Shown: positions 10,246 to 38,243 of the stretch, in pieces
Layout: each line of letters starts with the position of its first letter
Numbering within the stretch: the stretch's first letter is position 1
DNA from: an uncultured Flavobacteriaceae bacterium
Lineage (GTDB): Bacteria; Bacteroidota; Bacteroidia; Flavobacteriales; Flavobacteriaceae
NCBI GenBank assembly: GCA_937923515.1
Contig: CALDUF010000018.1
Location: 1-38,243, forward strand
DNA length: 38,243 bases
Direction: 5' to 3'
Notes under the pieces: model-generated
What the model was told of the DNA's origin: nothing
Database searches by the model: none
What the model saw: only the letters and a program-made list of their open reading frames with translations
Made by a program: the position numbers and the translations under genes

Positions 10246-10246
10246 T

Positions 10247-11239: not shown

Positions 11240-11256
11240 TACTCTGATATTTTTAA

Positions 11257-15323: not shown

Positions 15324-16735
15324 TTTTTTAAGCCTGTTATATACTTAGTAAATCCATTAAATAATTTAGGAATTGTGAACACTCCTAAAAAAGTTCCTAT
15401 ATAGTACGAAAAGCCACTTGTAAGGTCTCCGCGTAGCAAGAACATTAAATGAATAGCAAAATAAAATGCCATAAACTTTTTAAGTTTGTCATCTTGATTT
15501 AGCCAGCCTAAAAATTTCACCACAAAATAGGCAAGTAAAATAGCCATGAAAATAGAGCCCAAAACCCCAAAGTTTAAATATCCCTCGGAAATAACGGGAT
15601 TTGAAAGGTTATTAAAATGGAATCCAAATTTTTCTATCATGTAGTTTCCTATTAACTCTCCTGAGGAAATTGGTTTTGAGGTCCAAATACTTCTTGGCAC
15701 GAAAAAAAGCAGCACACTTAACAACTGATATCCCATAGATAATCCTTCATTAGAAACATAAACCATAGATGCTGATATATTGGCAAAAGCATCATAATTT
15801 AATGTATTAAACGTTGTTGAAAAGTTCTCTACTGAAAATTCGTCTGTTATATACTTAGGATTATTTAAAACCTCTTCAAATGTGTATTCTACGTGGGTTA
15901 ATATTTGTATTAATGGAAATATTATAACCATTGAAAAGAATAAAAAAGAAAGTGATTTATCGTTACTGTTCAAAAGTTTTGGGAAAAATAAAAACAACAA
16001 AGTAATATATATGGGGCCTAATGCATTACGTTTCTCGGTCAACGGGTTTTTGAACCAAAATAACAGTACTAAAAAGGATAAAAATATAAAAGATATTAAA
16101 AGTACGTTTGAAGTTATACGCTTAGTCTTTAGTAAATAGTTGTAACTCAAGATTAATCCACCTAAAGGAACAAGAAATAATACCTTTTTCTGTACTAATA
16201 AGTCAAAAACGGAATAACTGGATTGGTACCAACTTGGTCTAGTATATTCTTCAATTATAAAATTATAACTCATAATAAGCACCAAAACACAAAAAAATAA
16301 AATGAAAAGAAGGTTTAGTGGCAGCCTAGGGTTCTTTTTTATTATAACATTATTTTCTATACTACGCTTTTTTGCCTTTTTAAAAAAAACATAAAAGCTA
16401 TAAAATATGATATTAAACAAAATTATTAAAGCATTGGTTTGTATCGTTAAAGTTTCATCATATGGGAGTTTTTGAGAAAAGAACATATAGTCCTTTTCAA
16501 AAGTACCTATTTGTATAATGGGTGCCAAAACAAAAAATAAATAGTAAAAAACAATATAAGTAGATATAAATGGCGAAAAGTATTTTTCTATATATAAATG
16601 ATGAAAAGTAACTACCAATATGCCAATGAAACTCATAAAGAAAGATATCCAAACCCATGCATCTGCATTAAATGTAACAAACATTAATATACTTACTAGA
16701 GCGTAAAAAGTAATTAAAACATGTTTTAGTTTCAT
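15320..16735 (-). CDS. O-antigen polymerase-like membrane protein (Wzy candidate)
   Basis: A 471-residue polytopic protein with roughly twelve membrane segments. The loop with YDAFANISASMVYVSNEG and LLSVLLFFVPRSIWTSKPISSGELIGNYM is characteristic of oligosaccharide repeat unit polymerases of the OAG/Wzy_O-antigen type; SEGYLNFGVLGSIFMAILLAYF follows. It is expected to polymerise lipid-linked repeat units in the periplasm. It is embedded in a run of 4-bp overlaps with the neighbouring genes, so it is co-translated with the flippase/GT4 set. The division of labour with the adjacent ligase-like protein is unresolved. Confidence 0.85.
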   Translation of the reverse strand: MKLKHVLITFYALVSILMFVTFNADAWVWISFFMSFIGILVVTFHHLYIEKYFSPFISTYIVFYYLFFVLAPIIQIGTFEKDYMFFSQKLPYDETLTIQTNALIILFNIIFYSFYVFFKKAKKRSIENNVIIKKNPRLPLNLLFILFFCVLVLIMSYNFIIEEYTRPSWYQSSYSVFDLLVQKKVLFLVPLGGLILSYNYLLKTKRITSNVLLISFIFLSFLVLLFWFKNPLTEKRNALGPIYITLLFLFFPKLLNSNDKSLSFLFFSMVIIFPLIQILTHVEYTFEEVLNNPKYITDEFSVENFSTTFNTLNYDAFANISASMVYVSNEGLSMGYQLLSVLLFFVPRSIWTSKPISSGELIGNYMIEKFGFHFNNLSNPVISEGYLNFGVLGSIFMAILLAYFVVKFLGWLNQDDKLKKFMAFYFAIHLMFLLRGDLTSGFSYYIGTFLGVFTIPKLFNGFTKYITGLKK

Positions 16736-17799
16736 TTAATCAGGTCTATAAAGGTTTTACCCATGCTTTCAATTGAATATTTATTTTTACAATAAACACA
16801 AATTTTTTCTCTTTGAGAAATCCAAAATTTCTTATTGTCGTAAAATTTCAAAAGCTGTTTACTAAAATCGTTAATATTATCAGTTTCAAAAAACATTGAA
16901 TTTTCACTTTCTATAACTGCCTCAATTTCTGGTGAATGATTTTCTGTTTTTGATACTAACATTGGTACTCCAAAACTAAAACTTTGCGTTATTGATAACC
17001 CTACATAACCAGGAGAAACACTTAATATTGAAGTATCATATAATGATTTAAGAATATTATAATCACTAATATGTCCAAACAATTTTACGCTTTCCTGTAA
17101 ATTATGAGTTGCTATGTATTCGCTTAAATGTTCTTTTTCTTCTCCTTCTCCCACAAAGAACAATTTACTAGTTTTAGGCAATAAATCCAGTGCCTGATGA
17201 TAGCCTTTTAGTAAAAATAGAGGTTTCTTTTGTTTTGTCAGTCTGCCAACATAAATAATATTTTCAATATCTCCCTCAGCGTTACACTGCATTTCTTTCT
17301 TATAGTAAACCGCATTAACGGCGGCAGCTAGGGGTTTGTTTTTGATTAAACTTGATAGCTCTTTTTGTTGCGTTTCTGTATAAACTATAATTTTACTTCC
17401 TAAAAGCCTCATTAAATGCCTTAATTTATCACTTTTACTGCCCATTCCGCTCCTTGGCCATGCATGACCCCAAAGCACCGTTTTTTTGTTTATAATCTTT
17501 CTTATGAGTAGTATTAACCAGTTAGATATTATTCTGGGGTTCATTTCTAAAACCAAAATATTGTCCTTAAATACCTCACGCCAATGCTTCCCCGTTTGAT
17601 AAAGAAATTTATTTTTAAAAAAGAAAATATTATTTACTTCATTTATAAAACCAATTGAAAAATCTGTTTTTACAGAGTCTTCAAAATAATGCTTTCCGCT
17701 ATACAAATTAAAATCTTGTTTAAGTTGTTGCGCAATAAACATATATAGCTTTTTTCTATAATCTGGAGCGCTGGTTTGTAATATTACCAGTTTTTTCAT
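16732..17799 (-). CDS. Glycosyltransferase family 4
   Basis: A 355-residue GT-B enzyme. The donor-binding half shows IIYVGRLTKQKKPLFLLKGY, FFVGEGEEKEHL, SVSPGYVGLSITQSFSFGVPML and SPEIEAV, the standard GT4 sequence order; the N-terminal half (TSAPDYRKKLYMFIAQQL, VLWGHAWPRSG) resembles capsular GT4 enzymes of Bacteroidota. It should transfer one sugar during repeat-unit assembly. Four-base overlaps link it to the flippase and polymerase genes. Confidence 0.9.
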   Translation of the reverse strand: MKKLVILQTSAPDYRKKLYMFIAQQLKQDFNLYSGKHYFEDSVKTDFSIGFINEVNNIFFFKNKFLYQTGKHWREVFKDNILVLEMNPRIISNWLILLIRKIINKKTVLWGHAWPRSGMGSKSDKLRHLMRLLGSKIIVYTETQQKELSSLIKNKPLAAAVNAVYYKKEMQCNAEGDIENIIYVGRLTKQKKPLFLLKGYHQALDLLPKTSKLFFVGEGEEKEHLSEYIATHNLQESVKLFGHISDYNILKSLYDTSILSVSPGYVGLSITQSFSFGVPMLVSKTENHSPEIEAVIESENSMFFETDNINDFSKQLLKFYDNKKFWISQREKICVYCKNKYSIESMGKTFIDLIK

Positions 17800-19061
17800 G
17801 CTTTAGAACGCTTGTTAAAAAAATAAAAACCTAATATTAGCAGAAAAAACTCAGTAGTTGTAACGGAAAATGCTGTACCATAAATACCAAAAAATTTAAC
17901 GAACACTAAACTTAAAATTAAGTTAAATACTCCTCCTGTTATAAGTATATTCATTCTCAATTTATATTTTTTAATTGCTGGTAAATACAAGGCGTTATAC
18001 AGCATATTTAACCCTGAAAATATGGCTATTAAACTTAATATTTTGAAAATGATTGCATAACTTGAAATTAATTGGTCGTTATAAATTAGATTTAAAATAG
18101 TTTCTCCAAAAAACAATATAGTTAATGAAATTATAACCCCTAATGCAAGTATAGAAGGGCTCATTTTTTTTATTATATCGTTTTTCTTTTTGTCATCTTG
18201 TTTAGCTAACCAAGGGTAAAGCGCTTGATATAAAGGGCTATAAATATTCTTAACTGCTAAAATTAATTTTTCCATACTTGAATATACACCTACTGTAGTA
18301 TTTCCTGTAAAGATTCCTAAAATAAACACGTTACTAGACGTATATAACATGGTTGCAAAATTAGAGATAAAAAGACTTGTGCTTTCGTATAATAGTTTTT
18401 TTATTAACGCCAAGGAAGGCATTGTGAAATTCACATATTTAAAACTCATTATTAAACCTAATAAACCTGCTACAATAAAGCCTAATGAGTTGTAAACCGG
18501 CACATAAATATAATCTGACTCTTGCTTTATTAAAATAAATACTAGTAACGTAAATATTACTTTTGCTATAATATTTACTAGCGTTACAAACTTCATCTTT
18601 TCTATCCCTTGAAAAAACCATGTAGGAAATAAAGCTTGCCCTATAACTATGCCAAAGCTTAGGTAGTAAATGCTAGAGTCTATTCTAAATCTTGAAAAAG
18701 AATTCACAATAACGAAAAGAAGAAATAAGGCTGTTAAAATTAAGCCTATTTTGATAATCATGATTGCTGAAAAAATTTCTGAAATCTTATCTTTATCGTC
18801 TTTGTTTACAGCTATTTCTCTAGTACCGCTTATATTAAAACCGTAATCTACAAAAACCACCAAGAAAACACACAAAGATTGTGCAAACATTACCAAGCCA
18901 AACTTTTCTGCACCTAAAACTCTTACTAAAAAAGGGAGTATAACTAAGGGTAAAATATAGTTAGCTGCTTGAAGAATAGTAAGCGAAAAATAATTTGAAA
19001 TAACGACTTTGTTATCGTTAAAAAAGTTTTTTAAATTGATTTCCTTTTTTTTTAATGACAA
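17796..19061 (-). CDS. Wzx-type oligosaccharide flippase
   Basis: A 421-residue MOP-superfamily protein with about twelve membrane segments. The N-terminus (YFSLTILQAANYILPLVILPFLVRVLGAEKFGLVMFAQ, here given in part) is the classical Wzx start, and SLFISNFATMLYTSSNVFILG is the matching mid-protein segment. It flips undecaprenyl-linked repeat units from the cytoplasmic to the periplasmic leaflet. Presence of Wzx plus Wzy-like and Wzz-like proteins marks the locus as Wzx/Wzy-dependent, not ABC-transporter-dependent. It overlaps the next gene by 4 bp and lies 56 bp from the frameshifted lipoprotein gene. Confidence 0.93.
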   Translation of the reverse strand: MSLKKKEINLKNFFNDNKVVISNYFSLTILQAANYILPLVILPFLVRVLGAEKFGLVMFAQSLCVFLVVFVDYGFNISGTREIAVNKDDKDKISEIFSAIMIIKIGLILTALFLLFVIVNSFSRFRIDSSIYYLSFGIVIGQALFPTWFFQGIEKMKFVTLVNIIAKVIFTLLVFILIKQESDYIYVPVYNSLGFIVAGLLGLIMSFKYVNFTMPSLALIKKLLYESTSLFISNFATMLYTSSNVFILGIFTGNTTVGVYSSMEKLILAVKNIYSPLYQALYPWLAKQDDKKKNDIIKKMSPSILALGVIISLTILFFGETILNLIYNDQLISSYAIIFKILSLIAIFSGLNMLYNALYLPAIKKYKLRMNILITGGVFNLILSLVFVKFFGIYGTAFSVTTTEFFLLILGFYFFNKRSKA

Positions 19062-19117
19062 ACCTATTTTTATTTAAAAGTATTAAAATAGAACCCTTTT
19101 TTAAGAAACGATGTAGA

Positions 19118-19571
19118 TCAATTAATTTGTTTAATCGTTACACTATTAGGAACAATATTTACACTAGATTTCTCATCAGTTTTTGCTTTCCAGCTGAGAA
19201 TTTTGTTTTTTTCATTGGTTGATCCTAGTATAATCTTTATTTCTGAGACATTTATATGTCCAGAAAGTTTACACTTATACCAACCATTCGCAAGTTTTTC
19301 AATCAAAACATTTTCTTTTTCAAAATTACCTCCTTTTTTTGCGGCTTCAAGTTGGTAAAAATTTAATAATTCTATGTTTACCTTTTTCTTTATCAATTTC
19401 AAAAGATTTACTTTCATTATTAAATTCAAATTTTTTATTAGTCCGTGCAGGTATCTCAATAACTGCATTAATGTTTTTATCTAGAGAGAATAAAGGCAAA
19501 TGATAATAATTTGGTTTTTTTTCACATGAAAACACTAAAAAAAATAAAACAGTAAAACTTACTAAATTCAT
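19118..19571 (-). pseudogene. Frameshifted lipoprotein related to its upstream neighbour
   Basis: Two overlapping frames form one broken gene. The first starts MNLVSFTVLFFLVFSC, a lipoprotein signal peptide with the lipidated Cys at residue 16, as in the intact neighbour, and runs to a stop near 19347. The second frame (to 19118) carries the C-terminal module: IEKLANGWYKCKL, IKIILGSTNEKNKILSWKAKT and VNIVPNSVTI, aligning clearly with the neighbour's IEKLPNNWYKCTV, VRIIMGTTDSTRKVTSWEGKT and VYVVPSSIIL. The frames join with a +1 shift near an A-rich run at 19383-19390. The product would also lack about 55 residues in the middle relative to the neighbour. Sequencing error in the A-tract is an alternative to real inactivation. 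Confidence 0.8.
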
Positions 19572-19602
19572 AACCCTATCCAATTAAACAATAAATTTTA
19601 GT

Positions 19603-20235
19603 TTAAAATATTTCTTCTAAGATTATGCTTGACGGCACAACATATACACTTCCTTGTGCTTCTGTTTTACCTTCCCAACTTGTAACTTTTCTGGTTGAAT
19701 CTGTTGTTCCCATAATAATTCTAACATTATCAGCAGCAACTTCGGCACCCACCGTGCATTTGTACCAATTATTAGGTAATTTCTCTATGGTAGCCATCGC
19801 ATTTTCAAAATCTTGAGCGGTTTTATAATCAACTACCTCTCCTTTTTCTAAATCGAAAACGGCGTCTACCCTGTCTGGATAATCACCTGATATTCTTAAT
19901 CCAAAAAGACTGTTGTTTGATCCTTTTTTTACAATTACACTTACTTTATATTCTGAAGCGTATGTAACAGGAATTAATCCGCTTGATAGATAAGCAGATT
20001 CTGTAGTTGTAACCCTAGAAAGATGATAAACAGGATTAACATACTCAACCTCATCAGCTAACTCTAAGCTAACTCTAGTTTTTGTTAATGTTGCAATGTC
20101 TTCTGACAAAAAATTCTTTACTGTTTTATATTGTTTTTCAACAACTTCTTCAACTACAGCTTTTGTTTCTTTCTTTTTTTCATCTTTACAAGAAAAAACT
20201 ACTGCTAAAATTAAAAGTAAAATTATTCTTTTCAT
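19603..20235 (-). CDS. Lipoprotein with a beta-sandwich module resembling those of phage tail proteins
   Basis: A 210-residue predicted lipoprotein: signal peptide MKRIILLLILAVVFSC with lipidated C16, a charged Lys/Glu linker, then one module. The module contains YKVSVIVKKGSNNSLFGLRI, a VFDLEKGEVVD strand pair, ATIEKLPNNWYKCTV and a C-terminal SWEGKTEAQGSVYVVPSS. From memory this resembles the beta-sandwich carbohydrate-binding-like modules of phage tail and surface proteins (pattern YTFSVYVKAG...FDL..G.V...IE..GNGWYRC). Sugar binding at the cell surface is inference. The ATG at 20235 is used because it starts directly at the signal peptide. It lies 16 bp after fcl, and the frameshifted relative follows 31 bp downstream, suggesting tandem duplication. 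Confidence 0.8.
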   Translation of the reverse strand: MKRIILLLILAVVFSCKDEKKKETKAVVEEVVEKQYKTVKNFLSEDIATLTKTRVSLELADEVEYVNPVYHLSRVTTTESAYLSSGLIPVTYASEYKVSVIVKKGSNNSLFGLRISGDYPDRVDAVFDLEKGEVVDYKTAQDFENAMATIEKLPNNWYKCTVGAEVAADNVRIIMGTTDSTRKVTSWEGKTEAQGSVYVVPSSIILEEIF

Positions 20236-20251
20236 CGTATTTAGGTTTTTG

Positions 20252-21304
20252 TTATTGTTCATTACTTAAGTACCAATTATAGGCTTTTTTAACGCCTTCT
20301 TCTAACTCAATATTATGTTTCCAACCCAAGCTATTTAATTTAGATACATCGGTTAGTTTTCGCATTGTTCCATCTGGCTTATCTGTATTAAACACTAAAT
20401 TGCCTTTAAAGCCTATAGTGTTTTTAATGGTTTCTGCTAATGCTTTTATAGATATATCTTTACCAGTACCTATATTAATATGTGTGTTTCTAATTTCTTT
20501 ACTACCTTCATTGTAAGTGTCAGAGAAGTTTCTATTCTGCATAATAAATACACAAGCATCGGCCATATCTTCGCTCCATAAAAACTCGCGTTTAGGTTTT
20601 CCAGAGCCCCAAATTTCAACTTCAGTTGAGGTTACTCCAAAACCTTTTAAATACGTCTTAGCGTCTTCTATAGAAGATACATTTAAATCTTTAACAACTG
20701 CAGCTTCATTTCCTTCTGATAGTAATTTAGCTAAATGAATTTTACGGATTAAAGCAGGTAATACGTGTGATTTTTCTAAATCAAAATTATCGTTAGGCCC
20801 ATATAAGTTTGTTGGCATTACCGAAATAAAGTTTGTGCCGTATTGTAAATTATAACTCTCACACATTTTAATACCTGCAATTTTAGCAATAGCATAAGGC
20901 TCATTGGTATACTCTAAAGTATCGGTTAGCAAACTATCTTCTTTCATAGGTTGCGGTGCGTTTTTAGGATAAATACACGTACTCCCTAAAAACAATAGTT
21001 TTTTTACATCGTTTACATAGCTTTCATGGATTACATTGTTTTGAATCATCATGTTTGCATATATAAAATCTGCTCTATACTTATTGTTTGCTATAATACC
21101 ACCTACTTTTGCAGCTGCTAAAAAAACATATTCTGGCTGCTCTTGTTTAAAAAAATTAGCAACATCTGTTTGATTAGTTAGGTCTAGCGCTTTGTGAGTA
21201 CGCGTTATTATATTTTGATATCCTTTACTTTTAAGGTTTTTAAATATGGCGCTTCCCACCAAGCCTCTGTGGCCTGCAATATAAATTTTGGCATTTTTAT
21301 CCAT
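20252..21304 (-). CDS. fcl: GDP-L-fucose synthase
   Basis: A 350-residue SDR epimerase-reductase that converts GDP-4-keto-6-deoxy-D-mannose to GDP-L-fucose with NADPH. It shows the GHRGLVGS nucleotide loop near residue 11, GSTCIYP, the catalytic YAIAKIAG, and [15 protein letters not shown], all family signatures. It carries the roughly 30-residue insert before [14 protein letters not shown] that is seen in the longer Bacteroidota forms. It follows gmd by 5 bp, the usual operon order. Also known as wcaG. Confidence 0.96.
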
Positions 21305-21309
21305 GAAAT

Positions 21310-22428
21310 CTACTCGAAATAATTCATAATTTGATAACCACCCTCTTTAAGAAAGCTATCTTTTTCCATCAATTTTATATCACTTTTCATCATATCATCA
21401 ACTAAGGCTTGTAAATCATACTTTGGCACCCATCCTAATTTCTCTTTCGCTTTTGTAGCATCACCTATCAACAATTCTACTTCGGTTGGTCTAAAATATT
21501 TTGGATCTACAGCAATAACTTCTTTTCCAAGTTCTAATTGATATTTAGGATTATCACAGCTTTTTATATACCCCTTTTCATCTTCTCCTGTACCTTTAAA
21601 TTCTAGTGCGATGCCTACATGCTCAAAACACATTTTAACAAAGTCTCTTACGGTAGTAGTTTTATTTGTAGCAATCACCCAATCCTCTGGTTCATCTGCT
21701 TGAAGAATCATCCACATCATTCTTACATAATCTTTAGCATGCCCCCAGTCTCTTTGGGCATCAAGATTACCTAAATATATTTTCTCTTGTAAACCCAAGG
21801 CTATTTTTGATGTAGCCCTTGTAATTTTTCTTGTCACAAACGTTTCGCCTCGTATTGGAGATTCATGATTAAACAAAATCCCATTACAGGCAAACATACC
21901 ATAAGCTTCCCTGTAGTTTACTGTTATCCAGTAGGCATACATTTTTGCTACTGCGTATGGACTTCTAGGATAAAAAGGTGTTGTTTCGGTTTGTGGCACC
22001 TCTTGTACTTTTCCGTACAATTCTGAGGTAGATGCCTGATATATTCTTGTTTTTTTCTCCAAACCAAGTAAACGTAAAGCTTCTAATAATCTTAAGGTTC
22101 CAATACCATCAGCATTTGCTGTATATTCTGGCATTTCGAAAGACACGTGTACATGACTCATGGCTGCCAAATTATAAATTTCATCTGGCTGAACCTCTTG
22201 GATAATTCTAGTAAGGTTTGTACTATCAGTTAAATCACCATAATGCAAGAAAAAATTTTGATTATCAACATGAGGATCTTGATATAAATGATCAATTCTA
22301 TCTGTGTTGAATAATGATGATCGTCTTTTAACACCATGTACTTCGTATCCTTTTTTTAAAAGAAATTCACTTAGATAAGCACCATCTTGTCCTGTAACTC
22401 CTGTTATTAACGCTACTTTTTTTTGCAT
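21310..22428 (-). CDS. gmd: GDP-mannose 4,6-dehydratase
   Basis: A 372-residue SDR enzyme that makes GDP-4-keto-6-deoxy-D-mannose from GDP-D-mannose. Signatures are [19 protein letters not shown] at the N-terminus, [27 protein letters not shown] with the catalytic Tyr-Lys, and [20 protein letters not shown]. It is the first gene after a strong Bacteroidota promoter, so it starts the second transcription unit of the polysaccharide locus. The enzymes making GDP-mannose are not in the window. Confidence 0.97.
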
Positions 22429-22486
22429 CTTATTTAATTCTTTTTTTATGAGTCTTCTATCTTTTCAACCCGTATTTTATTTCACA

Positions 22487-22516
22487 CAAAAGTACAACAA
22501 TTGTTCCCTTTAACAA
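22487..22516 (-). promoter_or_regulatory. Canonical Bacteroidota promoter upstream of gmd
   Basis: On the minus strand, a -33 TTG (22516-22514), 19 bases of spacer and a -7 TACTTTTG (22494-22487) match the Bacteroidota consensus TTG-N17-23-TAnnTTTG. The leader to the gmd ATG is about 50 bases. This is the best promoter match in the window. Confidence 0.75.
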
Positions 22517-22598
22517 GGTTTATATTACCTGTGCTAATGTGTTACAATCTAATATACTTGATTAAAATACCATAAATCAACTGTTTGAAAAAAGCAAC

Positions 22599-22616
22599 CA
22601 ATATTTTTTTATATTG
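22599..22616 (-). terminator. Possible weak terminator after rfbD
   Basis: CAATAT and ATATTG form a 6-bp stem around an A6 loop on the minus strand, followed a few bases on by GCTTTTTTC. It lies about 30 bases after the rfbD stop and before the gmd promoter. The stem is AT-rich and weak. Confidence 0.35.
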
Positions 22617-22645
22617 AAGTCAACTTATATTTTAAGCCAAGTGTG

Positions 22646-23437
22646 TTATTCTCTTTTTTTTGATAAAACTGAATATAAGGGTCTTAACGCTAAAGTTTTA
22701 AATTTATCGGTCTTTATAAGGTTTATATTATCCAATAATTTATTTTCAATTAAAATACTCTTTGCAAAATCGTACCAAGTCATAGCATTTTCGTCACAAA
22801 AGTGATACAATCCAAAATTCTTATCGTTGTTTTTGATTAACTCTACAGTAAATCTTGATAAATTTTCAGTGTCTGTTGGAACTCCCTTTTGATCTGTGGT
22901 AATGCGTAATTCTTTTTCAGTCTTAGCCTTTTTAAGGATTGTTTTATAAAAATTATTCCCGTGCTTTTTGCTGTAAAGCCACGATGTTCTAATTATAAAA
23001 TAATTATCTAAAACTGCTTTAATATGATGTTCACCCTGCAGTTTGGATTTACCATACTCGTTAATTGGATTTGTATCATCACTTATTTTATAAGGTTCGG
23101 TTTTTTCTCCATCAAACACGTAATCTGTAGAAATATGAATTAAAGTAACCTTACGCTCTAAACAAACATTTGCTAAATTTTTAGCGCCTTGCGAATTAAT
23201 TTTATAAGCTATTTCTGGTGTTTTTTCAGCTTGTTCAACATTTGTATATGCAGCACAATTGATACAATAATTAAAAGCATGCTTACTAAAAAAAGATTCA
23301 AGTAGTGCCTTATTTGTAATATCTAATTCTGTTTTAGAGACAAATACAAAATGTAAACCTAAGGTGTTATTCTTGTATAACTCTTCAATTGTTTTTCCTA
23401 ACTGCCCATTGGCTCCAGTAACAAGAATAGATATCAT
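22646..23437 (-). CDS. rfbD: dTDP-4-dehydrorhamnose reductase, C-terminus apparently truncated
   Basis: A 263-residue SDR reductase completing dTDP-L-rhamnose synthesis. It has GANGQLG near residue 8, CAAYTNVEQAE, STDYVFDG, YGKSKLQGE and RTSWLYS. The family usually extends some 20 residues past RPxYSVLS to a final helix; here the protein stops at RPLYSVLSKKRE. An A8 tract (22654-22661) sits exactly there, and skipping one A gives a 14-residue continuation (ENNTLGLKYKLTSI, ending at 22609) that looks like the missing tail. So either the gene has a genuine 3' truncation or the A-tract has gained one base. The active-site part is complete. The start overlaps the rfbC stop by one base. Confidence 0.92.
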   Translation of the reverse strand: MISILVTGANGQLGKTIEELYKNNTLGLHFVFVSKTELDITNKALLESFFSKHAFNYCINCAAYTNVEQAEKTPEIAYKINSQGAKNLANVCLERKVTLIHISTDYVFDGEKTEPYKISDDTNPINEYGKSKLQGEHHIKAVLDNYFIIRTSWLYSKKHGNNFYKTILKKAKTEKELRITTDQKGVPTDTENLSRFTVELIKNNDKNFGLYHFCDENAMTWYDFAKSILIENKLLDNINLIKTDKFKTLALRPLYSVLSKKRE

Positions 23438-23982
23438 TAATCAAATAGGTTTTCAAAGGTTTCTAAATCAAGGTCTTTTTCTGATATTATCATTTCATCT
23501 TCAGGAATACCCCAATTAATCTTTACAGTTGTATCGTTATATATGATTCCAGATTCTGAAGCTTTATCATAATAGTTATCACATTTATAAGAAAAAATAG
23601 TGTCGTTTTCTAATGCAACAAATCCATGAGCAAAACCTCTTGGAACATATAGCTGCTTCTTGTTTATAGGGTCTAAAACTATTGAAAAATGTTGCCCAAA
23701 TGTTGGCGAATCTTTTCTTATATCTACACAAACGTCTAAAACTTTACCTTTTAGTACTTGTACTAATTTAGCTTGTGCTGACGTTCCTTTTTGAAAATGC
23801 AATCCTCTAAGTACACCTTTAGAGGAATTTGATAGGTTGTCTTGAACAAATTTGGTGTGTATTCCTGTTGCTTCAGAAAACGTTTTTTGGTTAAACGTTT
23901 CTAAGAAATAACCGCGTTCGTCTTTAAAAACTCTAGGTGTTATAACGTAGCAACCTTTTAGGTGTGTTTCCTTGATGTTCAT
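23437..23982 (-). CDS. rfbC: dTDP-4-dehydrorhamnose 3,5-epimerase
   Basis: A 181-residue cupin enzyme, the third step of dTDP-L-rhamnose synthesis. It shows RGYFLETFN near 23-31, VLRGLHFQ with catalytic His near 62, and the YVPRGFAHGFVAL strand. Length matches the family when the ATG at 23982 is used; an in-frame ATG at 24006 would overlap rfbA by 14 bp and add eight residues. It overlaps rfbD by one base. Confidence 0.96.
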   Translation of the reverse strand: MNIKETHLKGCYVITPRVFKDERGYFLETFNQKTFSEATGIHTKFVQDNLSNSSKGVLRGLHFQKGTSAQAKLVQVLKGKVLDVCVDIRKDSPTFGQHFSIVLDPINKKQLYVPRGFAHGFVALENDTIFSYKCDNYYDKASESGIIYNDTTVKINWGIPEDEMIISEKDLDLETFENLFD

Positions 23983-23992
23983 GGCGTCTTTA

Positions 23993-24847
23993 CTATAATG
24001 TTTCAAGGTATTCTCCGTAACCGCTTTTAAGTAAAGGTTGCGCTAGCTTACTTAATTGTGCTTTATTGATGTATCCCATTTTATATGCCATTTCCTCTAT
24101 ACATCCTATTTTAAGACCTTGACGCTCTTCGATAACCTCAACAAATTGAGATGCTTGCATAAGTGATGCAAACGTACCGGTATCTAACCACGCCGTTCCC
24201 TTATCTAAAATTTGTACGTTAAGCATGCCTTTATTTAAATAAACCTTGTTAACATCAGTTATCTCTAACTCCCCGCGTTTACTAGGTTCTATTTTTTTTG
24301 CGATCTCTATAACCGAATTGTCGTAAAAATAAATGCCTGGTACAGCAAAATTAGATTTAGGGTCATTTGGTTTTTCTTCAATAGAAATGGCTTTATTATT
24401 TTCATCAAATTCCACAACACCATAGCGTTGAGGGTCTTTAACATGATACGCAAAAACAACGCCACCTTTTGGGTTACTATTACTTTGTAAAATTTTATTT
24501 AAACCAGAGCCATAAAATATATTATCGCCCAATATTAAAGCTACAGCATCATCTCCTATAAACGCCTCGCCTATAATAAAAGCCTCAGCTAATCCTTTTG
24601 GTGATTCTTGTATGGCATACTCAAATTTACACCCAAAGTCTTCACCGTTTCCTAAAAGATCTTTAAACTTAGGTAAATCTTTAGAGGTGGAAATAATTAA
24701 AACCTCTCTTATTCCAGCAGATAAAAGTGTAGATAACGGATAATATATCATTGGCTTATCATAAACAGGCATAAGTTGCTTACTTAATACTTTAGTAAGC
24801 GGGTATAACCTAGTGCCTGAGCCTCCTGCTAAAATAATTCCTTTCAT
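23993..24847 (-). CDS. rfbA: Glucose-1-phosphate thymidylyltransferase
   Basis: A 284-residue nucleotidyltransferase producing dTDP-glucose from glucose-1-phosphate and dTTP. The N-terminus [20 protein letters not shown], then [39 protein letters not shown] and GTAWLDTGT are all classical. Length is normal. Its start overlaps the rfbB stop by one base (TAATG), so the rhamnose genes form a tightly coupled B-A-C-D unit. Confidence 0.97.
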
Positions 24848-25857
24848 TATACTTTATATTTTTTGGTATACCAGTCAATCGTTTTTCGTATGCCTGTTTC
24901 AAAATTTTCCTCAGCTTTCCAACCTAATTTTTTTTCTATTTTAGAAGCATCTATAGCATATCTAAAATCATGTCCTGGTCTATCTGTAACAAAGGTGATT
25001 TGATTTTTATACGATTGAGATTTAGGGAAGTCTTTATCTAAAATATCACAAATTTTATTAACGATATATAAATTATCTCTTTCGTTCTTCCCACCTATGT
25101 TATATGTTTCTCCTGCTACACCCATAGTGTAGGCTAGGTCTATACCTTTACAATGATCTTCTACATATAACCAATCTCTAATGTTTTTACCATCACCGTA
25201 AATGGGTATGTTTTCTCCGCGTAACGCTTTTCTAATTATGGTAGGAATTAGTTTTTCATCGTGTTGTTTTGGCCCGTAATTATTAGAACAATTTGTTGTA
25301 ACACAATTTAAACCATAGGTGTGATAATAACTTCTAGCAATAAAATCTGACGATGCTTTTGATGCACTATACGGGCTATTAGGAGCGTACGGTGTGCGTT
25401 CTGTAAACAACCCATCTTCGCCTAAAGTACCATAAACCTCATCTGTAGAAATATGTAAAAACCTTGATTTTAGGTGCTCGTCTTTAATTTTATTAGGCGC
25501 TAACATCCAATGGTTTTTAGCAACATCAAGTAGATTAAAAGTGCCTAAAACATTGGTGTTTATAAACATATCAGGCGATTTAATAGAATTATCTACATGA
25601 GATTCTGCCGCAAAGTGAATAACACCTTGAAAATTAAATTCTGTAAATAGGTCTTGAATTAATGTTCTATCACAAATATCACCCTTAACAAACGTGTAGT
25701 TTTTATGTTCTTGAACTTCAGCTAAATTAGAAAGCTCTCCTGCATAGGTTAACTTATCAATATTTACAATTTTAATATTTGGGTATTTATTGAGAAAATA
25801 GACTATAAAATTTGATCCTATAAACCCAGCACCACCTGTTATTAAAATATTCATCAA
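24847..25857 (-). CDS. rfbB: dTDP-glucose 4,6-dehydratase
   Basis: A 336-residue SDR enzyme converting dTDP-glucose to dTDP-4-keto-6-deoxyglucose. It has [13 protein letters not shown] at the N-terminus, [24 protein letters not shown] with the catalytic Asp-Glu pair, [10 protein letters not shown] with Tyr-Lys, and [17 protein letters not shown]. The start is one of two adjacent ATG codons (25857 or 25854). It follows the Wzz-like gene with no gap. Confidence 0.97.
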
Positions 25858-26934
25858 TTATATTTGATTTTTGTATTTCTCTAAAAATTTGATAAAATGT
25901 AGCGTTAATAAAATTATTGAAGCTAAAATTATGGCTATAATTGTATAGTATATTTTTATATTAAAAGCTTTTCCATATAACTTTCTACTATTATCTTTCG
26001 TTCCTTGGTTTTCTTGACTTGATACAATTTCTATAACGTATTGCTTATCTTCTTTTTCTCTTTGTATTTCAACCAATTCTCTTCTTAACTCAACATCATT
26101 TGTGTATAACTCAAATTCTTTAGTGAACCCTTTATTATCGTTATTATCAATACTAATGCTTGTTTGAGTTCCTGAAGGTGTTTCAAGTGGTGTTTCTAAA
26201 ACTTTCTTGTAAACCTGTTGGAGTTCTTTAGAAGCTTCTAAAGATGTGAGAATAGACTTTTCTAACCTAGATAGTTCATCTAAATCTTTCATTTGTTCAG
26301 TTTGAAAATAGTCTGTTTCTACTATTTTACCAACAATATTGTTTATAATAGTACCAAATATATCCTTCTCTTTTGCTTTAATTATAATACGTTGTACTGG
26401 ATATTGAAACTCTTTTGAGTTTTTGGAATAATCTTCAAATGTAACTGTAGCAGCTATAACAGAATCTAATTCCTTTGTGTATTCGTCAAAATTTTTCAGT
26501 TTATCATTTTCAGTAATTACTGATTCAACCTCTAAGTCTATAAGAGCCGCAGCTTTAGCTGGTGTAATATTTAGAACAGCACCTAAGGTTGCCGAATCGC
26601 CCTCTGCAATTAATTCGTTATAGTAATCAATAGCACGATATAAATTTTCTCCTGTATCATAGTTTTGTTTGATAACAGTGGTAGATTTGTAAGCTGAATC
26701 ACCTTTATTTTGTTTAAAATAGCCATAAACAAAACCGAGAACCCCAGCTATAATAATTTTAATGATGTGCTTTTTTACAAAGAAAATCAACCAAACAAAG
26801 GATAAGAATATTTTTTTCAATATATCTCCTATAGACTTGAAAAGTCTTTCAAACATATTCCCTATCATCTTAAAAAGCTGTCCTAAATCTACCTCTTCAG
26901 ATTGTTGTGGTTGCTGTGGCAAATCCTTACTCAT
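25858..26934 (-). CDS. Wzz-like polysaccharide co-polymerase (chain-length determinant candidate)
   Basis: A 358-residue protein with the co-polymerase plan: a cytoplasmic Gln/Pro-rich head, one or two membrane segments near residues 42-73, a long charged periplasmic domain with coiled-coil character (about 75-325), and a C-terminal membrane segment near 328-349 with a short basic tail. The first periplasmic residues (YKSTTVIKQNYDTGENLYRAIDYYNELI, given in part) and the later QRIIIKAKEK fit the Wzz/Fep fold loosely. No tyrosine-kinase domain is attached. Function as regulator of glycan length is inferred from topology and its place at the head of the rhamnose operon; sequence similarity to classic Wzz is weak. 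Confidence 0.65.
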   Translation of the reverse strand: MSKDLPQQPQQSEEVDLGQLFKMIGNMFERLFKSIGDILKKIFLSFVWLIFFVKKHIIKIIIAGVLGFVYGYFKQNKGDSAYKSTTVIKQNYDTGENLYRAIDYYNELIAEGDSATLGAVLNITPAKAAALIDLEVESVITENDKLKNFDEYTKELDSVIAATVTFEDYSKNSKEFQYPVQRIIIKAKEKDIFGTIINNIVGKIVETDYFQTEQMKDLDELSRLEKSILTSLEASKELQQVYKKVLETPLETPSGTQTSISIDNNDNKGFTKEFELYTNDVELRRELVEIQREKEDKQYVIEIVSSQENQGTKDNSRKLYGKAFNIKIYYTIIAIILASIILLTLHFIKFLEKYKNQI

Positions 26935-34155: not shown

Positions 34156-35343
34156 TTATTTTAAAATAGCAGCAATACCAGGTAATGTTTTACCCTCTAA
34201 ACTTTCTAACATAGCACCACCACCAGTACTTACGTAGCTTACTTTATCTTCAAAACCAAATTGCTTTACAGCAGCCACAGAATCGCCACCACCAACTAGT
34301 GAGAATGCGCCGTTTTTAGTAGCTTCGGCAATAGAATCTCCAAGTGCTATGGTGCCTTTTGCAAAACTTTCCATTTCAAAAACACCAAGTGGCCCGTTCC
34401 ATAAGATGGTTTTACTTTCCATTACTACTTTATGAAATTGCTCGCGCGATTTTGGTCCTGCGTCCACACCTTCCCAACCATCAGGAATTTCGTTAATATC
34501 AACAACTTGTGTGTTGGCATTGTTACTAAAATCGTCTGCAGCCACAGTATCTACAGGAATATGTATTTGTACATTTTTTGCTTTTGCTTGCTCTAAAATT
34601 TCTAGTGCTAGCGGCATTTTATCGTCTTCACAAATAGAGTTACCTATTTTACCACCTTGAGCTTTTACAAAGGTAAATGCCATACCACCGCCTATAATTA
34701 GGTGATCTACTTTATCTAAAATATTTTCTATAATAGTAATTTTCGAAGACACCTTTGCACCACCAAGAATGGCCAATACAGGTTTTTCGCCAGTTTCCAT
34801 TACTTTATTAATACTCTCAATTTCTTGAGCTAATAAGTTACCAAAGCATTTTTTGCCTTCAAAAAATTGTGCTACAATAGTTGTAGAAGCGTGTGCTCTA
34901 TGCGCCGTACCAAAAGCATCGTTTACATAAATATCACCTAGTTTAGAAAGTTGTTCTGCAAACCCTTGGTCTCCCGCAGTTTCTTCTTTATGGTAACGTA
35001 AATTTTCTAATAGTAAAATTTCTCCTGGTTGCAAGTTTGCAGCAGCAGCCTCGGCATTTTCGCCAACGCAATTAGATACAAACGTAACGCCAACACCCAA
35101 AATATCTTCTACTTTTGATACAATGTGTTGTAACGAAAACTCCTCTTGAGGCCCTTTTGGGCGCCCTAAGTGCGACATTAAAATACAACTACCACCATCT
35201 TCTAAAATTTTAATAATTGTAGGTTTCGCCGAAACGATTCTTGTAGCATCGGTTACCTCAAAATTTTCATTTAGCGGTACGTTAAAATCTACGCGGATAA
35301 GTGCTTTTTTATTTTCGAAATTAAAATCGTTTAGAGTCTTCAT
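34156..35343 (-). CDS. pgk: Phosphoglycerate kinase
   Basis: A 395-residue glycolytic enzyme transferring phosphate from 1,3-bisphosphoglycerate to ADP. It has RVDFNVPLN near 17-25, [34 protein letters not shown] and the C-terminal [14 protein letters not shown] nucleotide loop. Length and motif order are normal. It is preceded by its own -7 box and followed by the hairpin at 34099-34131. On its 5' side begins the accessory stretch. Confidence 0.98.
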
Positions 35344-35378: not shown

Positions 35379-35929
35379 ACTAATTAAACAGCCATAAAAA
35401 ATGACTTTTTTTACGAAAACGTTTGAGGTGCTTTAATTTTATTTGAAATTGATTATAATTAAAAAAACATAAATGAAAATAAATTGAATGATTTGGAAGA
35501 TTATCAAAAATCTGGAATGCTACAATTTAAGATAACGAATTTTACCATTACGAAAGCGAGTAAGAGATTTAGTTTATCCAAAGAAGATGTAAAGATTTAC
35601 TGCTTAAAAGTTAGAGAGAAAGTAAAAAAAAGAAGATGTTAACAAAGATTTAGTATATTTTTATTGAGCTAAATATTATTATTTGTAGGAATCAAATCAA
35701 TTCAATAAAACTCTTCATATATTCATTTAGAAGGTTTTATTATTTGGGTCTGCATCAATTTTAATTGCCATAGGCTATTTTATATTAGCGATGAAAGGAA
35801 AATCTAACTAAAAATTACTTATTGATTTTGATAAAAATTTAGGATACCTTCGTTCAACCTTAGGTGTAACTAATTATAATAAGTATACTCGCGTTGTGGG
35901 CATACTACATGAAAAACTCAGATTAATTA
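35379..35929. other. Gene-free stretch with decayed reading frames
   Basis: No intact gene is visible. Two plus-strand pieces look like old coding sequence. One (35484-35642) lacks an initial ATG and encodes ITKASKRFSLSKEDVKIY, then a lysine-rich end; an internal ATG at 35517 could give a 41-residue peptide. The other, from about 35731, reads KVLLFGSASILIAIGYFILA (one membrane segment), a TAA stop, then in the same frame GYLRSTLGVTNYNKYTRVVG and so on to a TAG at 35937, overlapping the start of the next gene by 8 bp. I do not recognise either family. Confidence 0.5.
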
Positions 35930-37894
35930 ATGAATAGAGCCTATTATAAAAATTCAATATCAAAATTTATTAGAGAAAATGACAATTCCATCCTAGGTAA
36001 ACTAAGTTTAAATCATTCTAATAGACAATTAGAAGATTTACAAAAAAATGCTTGGGTTAAGCAAATTGAAATATTAAAAGATCAATTAAATGAGTTTGAA
36101 GGCCAAATTTATTTTGAATTTGCTATCCCTAGAATGGGAAAAAGAGTTGATAATATAATAATCATAAATGACTCAATATTTGTAGTTGAATTTAAAGTTG
36201 GCGGTGGTGGTTTTGAAAATTATGCTCAAGCTCAGGTTTTAGATTACACACTCGATTTGAAAAACTTTCATGAAGGAAGTCATAATGCAAAACTAATTCC
36301 TGTTTTATTAGCCACAAATGCAGAGAATCAACATATTGAAATAGAGAATACCCTTAACCACAAAACTGTCGTTAAAACAAATAAAAAGAGCCTTAAATAT
36401 GTATTAAAAGGTTTCATTAAAAATTCTTCAAGCTATATTGATTTTGAAAACTGGGAATCTTCAACTTATAAACCTACCCCTACTATTGTTGAGGCAGCAC
36501 AAGCACTATACAAAGGACATAGCGTGGAAGCAATATCTCGATCAGATTCTGGAGCAATAAATCTATCTAAGACTGCTAACTGTTTAAATAGAATAATTGA
36601 TGATTCAAAAAATAATAAAAAGAAAACAATATGTTTTGTTACTGGAGTTCCTGGAGCAGGAAAAACATTAGCTGGTCTAAATATTGCTAATGAAAGATTA
36701 AAAGCAGATGAAGACGAACACGCAATTTTCCTTTCAGGAAACGGTCCTTTAGTAGATGTACTTAGGGAAGCATTAGCACGCGATTTAATTAAAAACTCAA
36801 AAGAAAATGGAAAACCAATAACAAAAGAAAATGCCAAAAGAAAAACAAATGCATTTATTCAAAACATTCACCATTTTAGAGACGAATACCTAAAACATAA
36901 TATTGAACCAACTGAAAAAGTTGTAGTTTTTGATGAAGCACAAAGAGCTTGGAATAAAAAACAGGTTAGTTCGTTTATGAAACGTAAAAAAGGTATTGAA
37001 AATTTTGAAATGTCTGAACCTGAATTTTTAATAGACGTGATGAATCGACACAAAGATTGGTGCACTATTATTTGTTTAATTGGTGGTGGACAAGAAATAA
37101 ATACTGGAGAAGCGGGATTAGAGGAATGGATAAATTCATTTCAGTATAAGTTTAAAGATTGGAAAGTGCATTATTCAAATCTAATAACTGATAGTAAAAA
37201 TTACATAAAAACTCTAGAACAAAAAAAATGGCTTTCTAATAAAGCGAAATCAGAAAGCGAATTGCATTTGTCCGTTTCTTTAAGATCATTTAGATCTGAA
37301 AAATTATCTGAATTTGTACACCAGTTTTTAGAATTAAATACTAAAAAATCTAAAGAACTTTATCGAGAAATTAAGGATGATTTTCCAATAAAAAGCACAC
37401 GCGAACTGTCTAAAGCAAAAGATTGGATTAGAAAACAAGCTAAAGGCAGTGAAAGAACAAGAATAATAGCATCTTCTGGTGCCAAAAGGCTTAGGCCATT
37501 AGGAATTAATGTAAAAAATGAAATATCTGCGCCAAACTGGTTTTTAAATGATAAAAAAGATATAAGATCCTCTTATTTCCTAGAAGAAATTGCAACAGAA
37601 TTTGACATTCAAGGTTTAGAAATAGATTGGTCTTGTTTAGCCTGGGGAGCAAATTTTTATATTGAAAATAACAAATGGAACTACCAAACCTTTAGAGGAT
37701 TTAAATGGCAAAATATCAATCAAGAAATTAGTAAGTCGTACCTAAAAAACACGTATCGAGTACTTTTAACACGCGCAAGGCAAGGAATGGTTATTTATTT
37801 ACCAAAAGGATCGTGTATAGATCACACAAGACCCGATAATTTTTATGATGGAACTTGGAATTATCTGAAAGAGATAGGAATTGAAGAGTTATAA
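35930..37894 (+). CDS. PD-(D/E)XK nuclease fused to a DUF2075 superfamily 1 helicase-like domain
   Basis: A 654-residue protein. The N-terminal region (about 40-165) has a PD-(D/E)XK nuclease layout: E63, D74 in GKRVDNIII, E87-x-K89 in VVEFKVG, and a following Q/Y helix AQAQVLDY (99-106). The rest is a DUF2075 domain: Walker A GVPGAGKT (239-246), Walker B VVVFDEAQRAW (331-341), GGGQEI (385-390), SLRSFRS (450-456), EFDIQGLEID (557-566) and the motif VI-like NTYRVLLTRARQGM (607-620). All key residues are present, so ATP-driven nucleic-acid translocation plus cleavage is likely. It stands alone between pgk and holB, flanked by decayed sequence and a repeat, which suggests an acquired defence gene; that role is inference. 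Confidence 0.85.
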   Translation: MNRAYYKNSISKFIRENDNSILGKLSLNHSNRQLEDLQKNAWVKQIEILKDQLNEFEGQIYFEFAIPRMGKRVDNIIIINDSIFVVEFKVGGGGFENYAQAQVLDYTLDLKNFHEGSHNAKLIPVLLATNAENQHIEIENTLNHKTVVKTNKKSLKYVLKGFIKNSSSYIDFENWESSTYKPTPTIVEAAQALYKGHSVEAISRSDSGAINLSKTANCLNRIIDDSKNNKKKTICFVTGVPGAGKTLAGLNIANERLKADEDEHAIFLSGNGPLVDVLREALARDLIKNSKENGKPITKENAKRKTNAFIQNIHHFRDEYLKHNIEPTEKVVVFDEAQRAWNKKQVSSFMKRKKGIENFEMSEPEFLIDVMNRHKDWCTIICLIGGGQEINTGEAGLEEWINSFQYKFKDWKVHYSNLITDSKNYIKTLEQKKWLSNKAKSESELHLSVSLRSFRSEKLSEFVHQFLELNTKKSKELYREIKDDFPIKSTRELSKAKDWIRKQAKGSERTRIIASSGAKRLRPLGINVKNEISAPNWFLNDKKDIRSSYFLEEIATEFDIQGLEIDWSCLAWGANFYIENNKWNYQTFRGFKWQNINQEISKSYLKNTYRVLLTRARQGMVIYLPKGSCIDHTRPDNFYDGTWNYLKEIGIEEL

Positions 37895-38033
37895 AGCATA
37901 GTGTAACAAAAATTTAAAAAATAAGGATTAAAAGGTAAGACCATAAGTTTACAATAATTGATTATATTAAACAAAACACCTTCCAAAAAAACTACTACTT
38001 CAACCCCAAAACACATCTTCTGCAAATAGACCC

Positions 38034-38155
38034 GCGTTAGGGATTGAGGCATTTGTTGAAGCTCCCCGACGCAGGAGGGAGCGACTGCCGAAAGCCCGAC
38101 CCAAGCGATCCTGCAAGGTTTCTAAAAACCTTGTAGGTATGAGCGCAGGGAACGC
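38034..38155 (+). repeat. GC-richer structured intergenic repeat with three nested stems
   Basis: An outer GCGTT (38034-38038) pairs with AACGC (38151-38155). Inside are a GCTCCC/GGGAGC hairpin (38061-38066 with 38077-38082) and a 12-bp hairpin (38110-38121 with 38126-38137, one G-T pair, loop CTAA). The words GTTAGGGAT, AAAGCCCGACCC and AGGGAACGCCC are ones I remember from an interspersed intergenic element of many Flavobacteriaceae genomes. The strand is not certain. Function unknown: terminator, REP-like element or non-coding RNA. Confidence 0.6.
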
Positions 38156-38178
38156 CCAAAATATTTAAAAAATTGCTT

Positions 38179-38186
38179 TACTTTTG
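38179..38186 (+). promoter_or_regulatory. Promoter -7 element of holB
   Basis: TACTTTTG is an exact TAnnTTTG match, ending only 4 bases before the holB ATG, so the mRNA would be essentially leaderless. Confidence 0.55.
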
Positions 38187-38190
38187 TGCG

Positions 38191-38243
38191 ATGCTGTTTC
38201 AAGACGTTTTAGGGCAAGAACATATTAAAGCGCACTTAACTAC
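38191..38243 (+). CDS. holB: DNA polymerase III subunit delta' (partial, first 17 residues)
   Basis: The frame starts at an ATG and reads MLFQDVLGQEHIKAHLT before the right edge. This matches the well-conserved N-terminus of Bacteroidota delta' clamp-loader subunits (MLF..xxGQ..IK..L). Only the first residues are visible, so the call rests on that short match and on the remembered pgk-holB neighbourhood in Flavobacteriaceae. Confidence 0.75.
   Translation, partial: MLFQDVLGQEHIKAHLT

What the first reader, a model, noticed from the sequence alone, without database searches (positions are those of the whole stretch)
35930..37894. Stand-alone PD-(D/E)XK nuclease-DUF2075 helicase, candidate single-gene defence system
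Both halves keep their key residues: E63, D74, E87-x-K89 for the nuclease; Walker A at 239-246, DEAQ at 335-338 and the arginine-bearing LLTRAR near 611-616 for the motor. DUF2075 ATPases recur in defence islands, often with a GIY-YIG nuclease; the PD-(D/E)XK fusion is a different pairing. The gene is alone in what looks like an accessory insertion between two core genes, next to decayed sequence. Of the window's content it is the best candidate for a little-described system.
Basis: partly seen in the sequence, partly recalled or inferred. Interest (0 to 1): 0.75.

Follow-up and report, generated by a model that had tools for sequence, protein, structure and literature searches.

The report
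Integron-borne nuclease-helicase, a defence candidate
The gene makes a DNA-cutting motor enzyme already listed as a possible anti-virus protein, and some of its relatives travel as single-gene cassettes in a little-noticed, integron-like gene-capture system that looks widespread in one family of bacteria.

Summary
Window 35930-37894 encodes 654 aa: an N-terminal PD-(D/E)XK fold and a Schlafen-group-3 (DUF2075) helicase, with the named catalytic residues invariant in 35 homologues. It is not a new family: PADLOC lists it as PDC-S41, an unvalidated phage-defence candidate (2.5e-287). It is accessory: 1 of 12 genomes of the genus; one congener has 131 bp between pgk and holB instead.

Its flanks lead further. 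In at least 15 of 107 distinct loci the gene is bounded like an integron cassette, by ~130-bp attC-like elements or GTT-anchored inverted boxes; in two it is one member of arrays of 16-17 elements. A covariance model of the elements hits 171 of 198 Flavobacteriaceae genomes. They lie downstream of, and co-oriented with, an Xer-type recombinase (22 of 26 testable loci of the 30 best) that scores below the integron-integrase cut-off. The survey I read reports one complete integron in Bacteroidetes. The window's own junctions align with cassette junctions in congeners but are decayed.

Defence is inferred, not shown. PDC-S41 also occurs with a restriction-type controller gene or a Nudix hydrolase (PDC-S07).

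The parts
34156..35343 (-). pgk (phosphoglycerate kinase; name recalled), left core neighbour
   Evidence: ORF; match in 12 of 12 genomes of the genus, own included
35849..35895 (+). decayed left junction of a cassette site (TTCGTTCAACC ... GCGTTG); in congeners TTCGTTTAACG, GGATAT...ATATCC, R box
   Evidence: alignment A6 with L025, L027, L028; does not fold as a hairpin here; decay is inference
35893..35929 (+). cassette 5' leader (GTTGT...TACTACATGAAAAAC), counterpart of GTTGTACTRYATTAA in L046, L047, L052, L055
   Evidence: BLASTN homology with L046, L047 and L055 starts at 35903; flank sequences
35930..37894 (+). PDC-S41: PD-(D/E)XK nuclease + SLFN-g3 (DUF2075) helicase, 654 aa
36035..36424 (+). 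nuclease domain, residues 36-165 (E63, D74, E87-x-K89, Q102-x3-Y106)
   Evidence: invariant in 35 sequences; fold
36623..37804 (+). helicase domain, residues 232-625 (Walker A 239-246, DEAQ 335-338, R615)
   Evidence: PF09848 6e-81; best PDB match of the full model human SLFN11
37896..37907 (+). possible remnant of R'' box (GCATAGTGTAAC; ACGCAGTACAAC in L047 and L052)
   Evidence: comparison of flanks; inference, the match is partial
37966..37972 (+). remnant of R' box (ATTAAAC; GTTAAAC in G132, G202, G204)
   Evidence: alignment A5; no model hit in the window
38191..38243 (+). start of holB (DNA polymerase III delta' subunit; name recalled), right core neighbour; cut by the contig end
   Evidence: homology with L018, L021, L035 and others

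Best explanation
The gene is a mobile, single-gene nuclease-helicase of the catalogued family PDC-S41. SHOWN: nuclease and motor residues intact; accessory, patchy, cross-phylum distribution; in at least 15 distinct loci its ends are those of an integron-type cassette; Flavobacteriaceae, the window's own genome included, carry attC-like elements and an Xer-type recombinase. INFERRED FOR THIS COPY: it entered the pgk-holB site as such a cassette, whose recombination ends have since decayed. INFERRED FUNCTION: the motor loads on foreign DNA (ends, replication or recombination intermediates) and feeds strands to the PD-(D/E)XK domain, which degrades or nicks them, so that phage or plasmid DNA fails to establish. 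I found no controller gene with the cassette form; other chromosomal copies are often coupled to a restriction-type controller protein or lie beside a Nudix hydrolase, as might be expected for a nuclease that is risky to the host.
For: PDC-S41 full-length match; SLFN-g3 helicase; residues invariant in 35; nuclease fold; SLFN11 best PDB match. Absent from 11 of 12 genomes of the genus; 23 of 395 phylum genomes with a strong match, E <1e-150; relatives in four plasmid records, one phage record, nine viral contigs; the tree mixes phyla. Neighbours: PDC-S07 in 10 of 114 nearest ORFs and Pfam NUDIX in 10 of 114; neither is among the 25 families listed for 110 distant ORFs. Controller protein at the start codon in 22 of 107. 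Cassette ends: GTT-anchored inverted box in 13 of 105 loci, permuted mean 0.8, maximum 3; other ORFs of the same loci outside five array loci 8 of 792. R1 hits at the gene's ends in 9 of 81 sources, all on its strand. Site: alignments A5, A6.
Against: No phage, plasmid or biochemical test was seen. The window gives no R1 hit at E <=0.1 and its flanks do not fold; cassette origin of this copy rests on homology of the site and a 27-base leader. 92 of 107 distinct loci show no cassette ends by my tests (five viral loci, L126-L130, were not scanned with R1). R1 was built from 14 elements, six beside PDC-S41 and two at pgk-holB of G132 and G202, so hits there are by construction; hits at the gene's ends that are independent of the model are L055, L062 (two), L068 (upstream one), L069 and L094. 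A general defence-island setting is not shown: the distant ORFs also held defence hits (mad3 3, mad8 2, type I restriction). Fold matches of the nuclease are weak. PADLOC's label is itself guilt by association.
Confidence: 0.6

Rival explanations
1. The family is a DNA-repair or recombination enzyme (RecB/AddA-like end processing) spread by transfer, not a defence system.
For: The nuclease model resembles NucS; in eight loci (six after removing doubles) it lies near polA (name recalled) and a Nudix gene.
Against: Absent from most genomes of genus, family and phylum examined; variable sites; a polA-Nudix pair stands without it beside in four genomes, G013, G061 (which has PDC-S41 elsewhere), G091, G173; coupled to a restriction-type controller in 22 of 107 loci.
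Confidence: 0.15
2. It is an anti-plasmid or anti-transformation nuclease rather than an anti-phage one.
For: The architecture equally suits degradation of any incoming linear or replicating DNA (inference).
Against: Nothing here separates the two; two Persicobacter plasmid records themselves hold a relative at 67% identity.
Confidence: 0.2
3. This window's copy came in by ordinary homologous or illegitimate recombination; the cassette resemblance of its flanks is chance.
For: No R1 hit and no hairpin in the window; the R'' match is partial.
Against: Both junctions align with those of other single-gene inserts at the same site in congeners, two of which have an attC-like element directly behind the gene (both elements were in the model); DNA shared with L046, L047 and L055 starts at the same base 35903.
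Confidence: 0.25
4. The ~130-bp elements are not attC sites but terminators or REP/MITE repeats.
For: They are hairpin-like repeats between genes, found by similarity; no recombination was shown. Of three bottom strands folded, two (L212, L110) give one long hairpin and one (L028) does not.
Against: Conserved AAC...GTT ends and an L stem with compensatory changes at 9 of 13 pairs; 64 of 68 ORFs between elements co-oriented with them, 39 of 63 intervals with one ORF; gene-specific inverted boxes at both ends of one gene; all 30 hits near the 30 best recombinase loci lie downstream and co-oriented.
Confidence: 0.07

Closest known systems
PADLOC PDC-S41 (PDLC05014)
   Same: Full-length profile match, positions 1-653 of 657, E 2.5e-287
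   Different: Nothing in the protein; the cassette form, controller gene and Nudix neighbour are not part of this single-gene label as seen here
Human Schlafen SLFN11/SLFN14 (solved structures)
   Same: Best PDB matches of the full model, E 1e-9 and 6e-8
   Different: TM only about 0.3; SLFN N-domains are RNases of another fold (recalled; title of PMC5862951 in the listing)
Upx, Nhi, Shedu (single-gene anti-phage nucleases)
   Same: One-gene nuclease systems; Upx (9wuf) is among the weaker fold matches of the nuclease domain (E 0.05); Nhi is also a nuclease-helicase, Shedu has a PD-(D/E)XK domain (passages of PMC12904381)
   Different: Only PDC-S41 matched strongly in PADLOC (next Cas4_II 0.0014, mad8 0.0039); I did not check whether PADLOC holds models of these three, nor compare their sequences
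Integrons with IntI
   Same: attC-like elements with R and L boxes, arrays of co-oriented genes behind a tyrosine recombinase
   Different: The recombinase is below the TIGR02249 cut-off, leaves model positions about 181-238 unmatched and scores best with XerA (NF040815)

Membership tests
PDC-S41 | whole-protein profile match | tested here: met
   E 2.5e-287, residues 1-654
PDC-S41 as a working defence system | protection against phage | not testable with these tools
   no paper in the library holds 'PDC-S41'; PDCs called unvalidated in passages of PMC12988326
PD-(D/E)XK nuclease | fold and E/D/ExK residues | tested here: met
   fold matches weak, TM below 0.5
SLFN group 3 / DUF2075 helicase | PF09848 above its gathering score | tested here: met
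   272.9 bits against 24
Restriction-modification | a methyltransferase regularly beside the nuclease | tested here: not met
   DNA_methylase in 1 of 114 nearest ORFs at 59 loci; none recognised by me in the window's ORFs (no family scan of these)
Integron gene cassette (PDC-S41 in relatives) | gene bounded by an R box at its 5' end and attC directly after the stop | tested here: met
   R1 hit directly after the stop: L047, L055, L062, L068, L069, L094, L110; inverted boxes at both ends: L047, L052, L055, L062, L069, L078-L081, L086, L101, L110
Integron gene cassette (window copy) | intact attC | tested here: not met
   no R1 hit, no hairpin; decayed junctions align with congeners
Integron in the strict sense | IntI integrase with IntI-specific domain | tested here: not met
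   0 of 10 genomes over the TIGR02249 cut-off; model about 181-238 unmatched in the best hits; definition from passages of PMC9668308
Integron in the strict sense | attC recombined by the integrase as folded single strand | not testable with these tools
   bottom strands: two of three elements fold as one long hairpin (z -1.65, -2.66), the third only in pieces (z -2.28)

The most novel reading that the evidence does not exclude
Flavobacteriaceae as a family carry their own class of chromosomal integron, run by an XerA-like recombinase that seems to lack the IntI-specific domain and is therefore missed by integron finders. This system moves genes such as the defence candidate PDC-S41 as single-gene cassettes, both within arrays and into isolated chromosomal sites such as pgk-holB.
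Probability: 0.7. Interest if true: 0.87.

Novelty: new variant of a known kind. Interest (0 to 1): 0.74.

Why it matters
The nuclease-helicase alone is a catalogued candidate. The new part is how it travels. If Flavobacteriaceae have integrons with a non-IntI recombinase, a large cassette pool in a major bacterial family has been invisible to searches that require IntI. Integron-borne phage defence, known to me from Vibrio and from mobile integrons (recalled, no call), would extend to another phylum. It also makes a question directly testable: whether the IntI-specific domain is needed for attC recombination. PDC-S41, found in cassette form and in controller-coupled form, is a clean pair for asking how a risky nuclease is kept silent.

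Tried and rejected
Rejected or inconclusive: (1) a new protein family: PADLOC already has it. (2) R-M system: no regular methyltransferase partner. (3) A core, syntenic gene: refuted. (4) Genuine IntI: below the TIGR02249 cut-off in 10 of 10 genomes. (5) Rfam at the flanks: seven loci gave only two unrelated leader families. (6) A word-based scan for attC: 110 hits against 82 in shuffled sequence, not discriminating; replaced by a covariance model. (7) The motif GTTGTACTGCAT with two mismatches: hits in most loci, so chance; informative only at the gene's ends. (8) PADLOC scan of 57 array genes: PDC-S41 and single members for PDC-S32, PDC-S15, PDC-S54, PDC-S69, WYL, DrmC and Cas3c; the output does not tell how many distinct proteins these are and the distant-ORF scan used another threshold, so no claim of enrichment. 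(9) General defence-island enrichment: not shown, since the distant ORFs also held defence hits. (10) PDB sequence search: nothing. (11) A family of small proteins (YLYRDAGNYK) in eight loci: three members gave no Pfam match. (12) Preprints could not be searched; the PDC source paper was not read. In the inverted-box test I dropped L061 of the 13, because its boxes lie far from the gene.

Full report
1. The protein. The frame 35930-37894 is intact, 654 aa. It matches Pfam SLFN-g3_helicase (6e-81, residues 232-625) and, over its whole length, PADLOC PDC-S41 (2.5e-287). NCBIfam gave nothing near a cut-off, a PDB sequence search nothing. The full-length model (pLDDT 83) matches human SLFN11 and SLFN14 best (E 1e-9, 6e-8, TM about 0.3), then Upf1-type helicases and, at rank 45, EcoR124I HsdR. 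A model of residues 26-177 alone (pLDDT 90.4) finds nucleases at the top with modest scores (NucS 6.2e-4, Cdn1, Can2, Bax1, ACE1, Upx 0.05; two structural-genomics proteins and R2 retrotransposon proteins are among them).

2. Distribution. 11 of 199 genomes of the family, own genome and one broken divergent copy included; 1 of 12 of the genus; 34 of 395 of the phylum at E <=0.001, of which 23 are strong (E <1e-150). A scan of named genomes gave 323 relatives, of which 80 loci were kept; they include Campylobacterota, Acinetobacter and Neisseria at 58-69% identity. On a quick tree of 35, Bacteroidota need 9 label changes, of which starred branches force at least 4; several rows are metagenome bins. 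Four plasmid records (two at 67%, two at 28%), one phage record (48%) and nine viral contigs (29-55%) hold relatives.

3. The site. In the window the gene lies between pgk and holB (names recalled). Of 11 congeners, nine have holB within 5 kb of pgk: one with 131 bp and nothing between, eight with other genes; in two I saw no holB within 12 kb. So the interval is a variable site.

4. Neighbours in relatives. Of 114 nearest-neighbour ORFs at the 59 loci with 8 kb on both sides, 10 match PDC-S07 and 10 match Pfam NUDIX. Six Nudix proteins scanned singly all match PDC-S07, 7e-31 to 1e-48. Among 110 ORFs 6-9.5 kb away, neither is among the 25 families listed, each of which has at least one member, so at most one ORF could have either. 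That distant set does hold other defence hits (mad3 3, mad8 2, type I restriction), so only the Nudix link is claimed. Thirteen distinct loci have the Nudix gene within 0.5 kb: eight convergent, four upstream and one downstream co-directional. The convergent group is often next to polA, and in four genomes a polA-Nudix pair stands without the nuclease beside it, so these eight are not independent events. A controller-type HTH protein (PADLOC Control_protein, 5e-22) overlaps the start codon or ends within about 30 bases of it, by alignment, in 26 of 119 loci, 22 of 107 after removing doubles. This is the C-protein arrangement of restriction systems (recalled).

5. Cassette ends. Homology between the window and L046, L047 or L055 starts at the same base, 35903, 27 bases before the ATG, and ends 1 to 29 bases after the stop. 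In L047, L052 and L055 the run GTTGTACTGCAT (or near) precedes the gene and its inverse follows the stop. A test anchored on GTT finds such a pair in 13 of the 105 distinct loci with enough flank; 30 permutations gave a mean of 0.8 and a maximum of 3. One of the 13, L061, has its boxes far from the gene and I drop it. Other ORFs of 200 aa or more in the same loci gave 8 of 792 outside five array loci and 9 of 43 inside them. The loci are related, so 13 is not 13 events; there are three or four box types.

6. attC-like elements. Fourteen elements (A4; model of 131 positions) share AAC and GTT ends and an L stem with compensatory changes at 9 of 13 pairs. Covariance model R1 found 51 hits at E <=0.1 in 81 sources, all on the strand of PDC-S41. 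L110 (Tenacibaculum skagerrakense) has 16 and L052 (Robertkochia solimangrovi) 17, with the gene as one member. Hits abut the gene in L047, L048, L052, L055, L062, L068, L069, L094 and L110; six of the model's 14 elements come from there, and the hits independent of the model are L055, L062 (two), L068 (upstream), L069 and L094. With the inverted-box loci that makes 15 distinct loci of 107; the five viral loci L126-L130 were not scanned with R1. None of the 15 has the controller protein; the chance of no overlap with 22 of 107 is 0.024, ignoring relatedness. In L078-L081 and L086 the box is GTTACCGGT, and in L086 a recombinase 40% identical over 267 aa to the one below lies 130 bp upstream.

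7. The system. R1 hits 12 of 15 genomes tried, several of which gave elements to the model, and 0 of 3 in Neisseria, Acinetobacter and Sulfurimonas; the window's genome has 13. In the family it hits 171 of 198 genomes at E <=0.001, with only 17 candidates scored per genome and rough E-values; no survey outside the family was run beyond those three. Between neighbouring elements in ten loci, 39 of 63 intervals hold one ORF, 10 none, 14 more; 64 of 68 ORFs are co-oriented. In 9 of 10 genomes the best integron-integrase-like match is, as I read the scores, a ~360-410-aa recombinase (one with a stop inside; in G597 only Xer-like hits), never over the TIGR02249 cut-off, with model positions about 181-238 unmatched. 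NCBIfam XerA (NF040815) scores best in 4 of 4 and exceeds its cut-off in 2. Relatives of it occur in 121 of 198 family genomes at E <=1e-45. Of the 30 best, 22 have R1 elements within 1.5 kb, all 30 hits downstream and co-oriented; four of the other eight are cut by a contig end downstream. In the window's genome the recombinase lies 0.2 kb from the end of contig 93. In G132 elements lie upstream on the other strand instead.

8. The window's copy. The right junction aligns with those of single-gene inserts at the same site in G132, G202 and G204, the left with G132, G202 and G207. In G132 and G202 an attC-like element follows that gene directly (both were in the model), and G202 also has a short hit at the left end (E 0.008). 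In the window the right R box reads ATTAAAC for GTTAAAC, R1 finds nothing and neither flank folds. I read this as a cassette whose ends have decayed; it is inference.

9. Literature. 'PDC-S41': no paper. 'DUF2075': five papers in the listing, none on defence by title. PDCs come from 'guilt by embedding' and most are unvalidated (passages of PMC12988326). PDC-S07 co-localises with type IV restriction in Streptococcus suis, 23 of 23 (passages of PMC12813430). IntegronFinder 2.0 reports one complete integron in Bacteroidetes, in Salinibacter ruber (passages of PMC9024848). Bacteroidota appears in lists of phyla with integrons (passages of PMC8618304 and PMC9668308). A Tenacibaculum genome run with IntegronFinder 2.0 gave none (passages of PMC10013915). 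One search for integrons with Flavobacteria or Bacteroidetes listed 30 of 38 papers, none by title on a Flavobacteriaceae integron (listing only). [quoted passage not shown] So I found no report of this system, but preprints and most subscription papers were out of reach.

10. Verdict.

Noticed in passing
L201 / L205 (window's genome, contig 93, 188-1381): Xer-type recombinase of the window's genome, 0.2 kb from a contig end, as might be expected if a repeat-rich cassette array follows.
   Followed up: partly
L056 9733-10005, L065 9730-10005 and 20 other distinct loci: Restriction-type controller protein (HTH) overlapping or abutting the start codon of PDC-S41.
   Followed up: partly
L065 11940-12338, L042 10905-11288, L063 4541-4906, L084 9617-9973, L041 8100-8471, L045 8467-8898: Nudix hydrolases (PDC-S07) beside PDC-S41 in several arrangements; the L084 copy looks degraded in its Nudix box (motif recalled).
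   Followed up: partly
L044 10929-11252, L172 10012-10398, L175 9955-10386, L176 (gene abutting the start): Small protein family (YLYRDAGNYK) recurring next to PDC-S41, co-directional or convergent; three members scanned gave no Pfam match.
   Followed up: partly
L112 9266-9718, L115 9253-9783, L123 29-493: Divergent ~150-aa gene of unknown family upstream of controller-type PDC-S41 loci, mostly Flavobacterium.
   Followed up: partly
window 38030-38180: G+C-rich stretch before holB, also near holB in G132 and G204; looks like a dispersed repeat.
   Followed up: no
window 8110-26934: What looks like a polysaccharide (O-antigen or exopolysaccharide type) biosynthesis cluster, read from the ORFs.
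   Followed up: no
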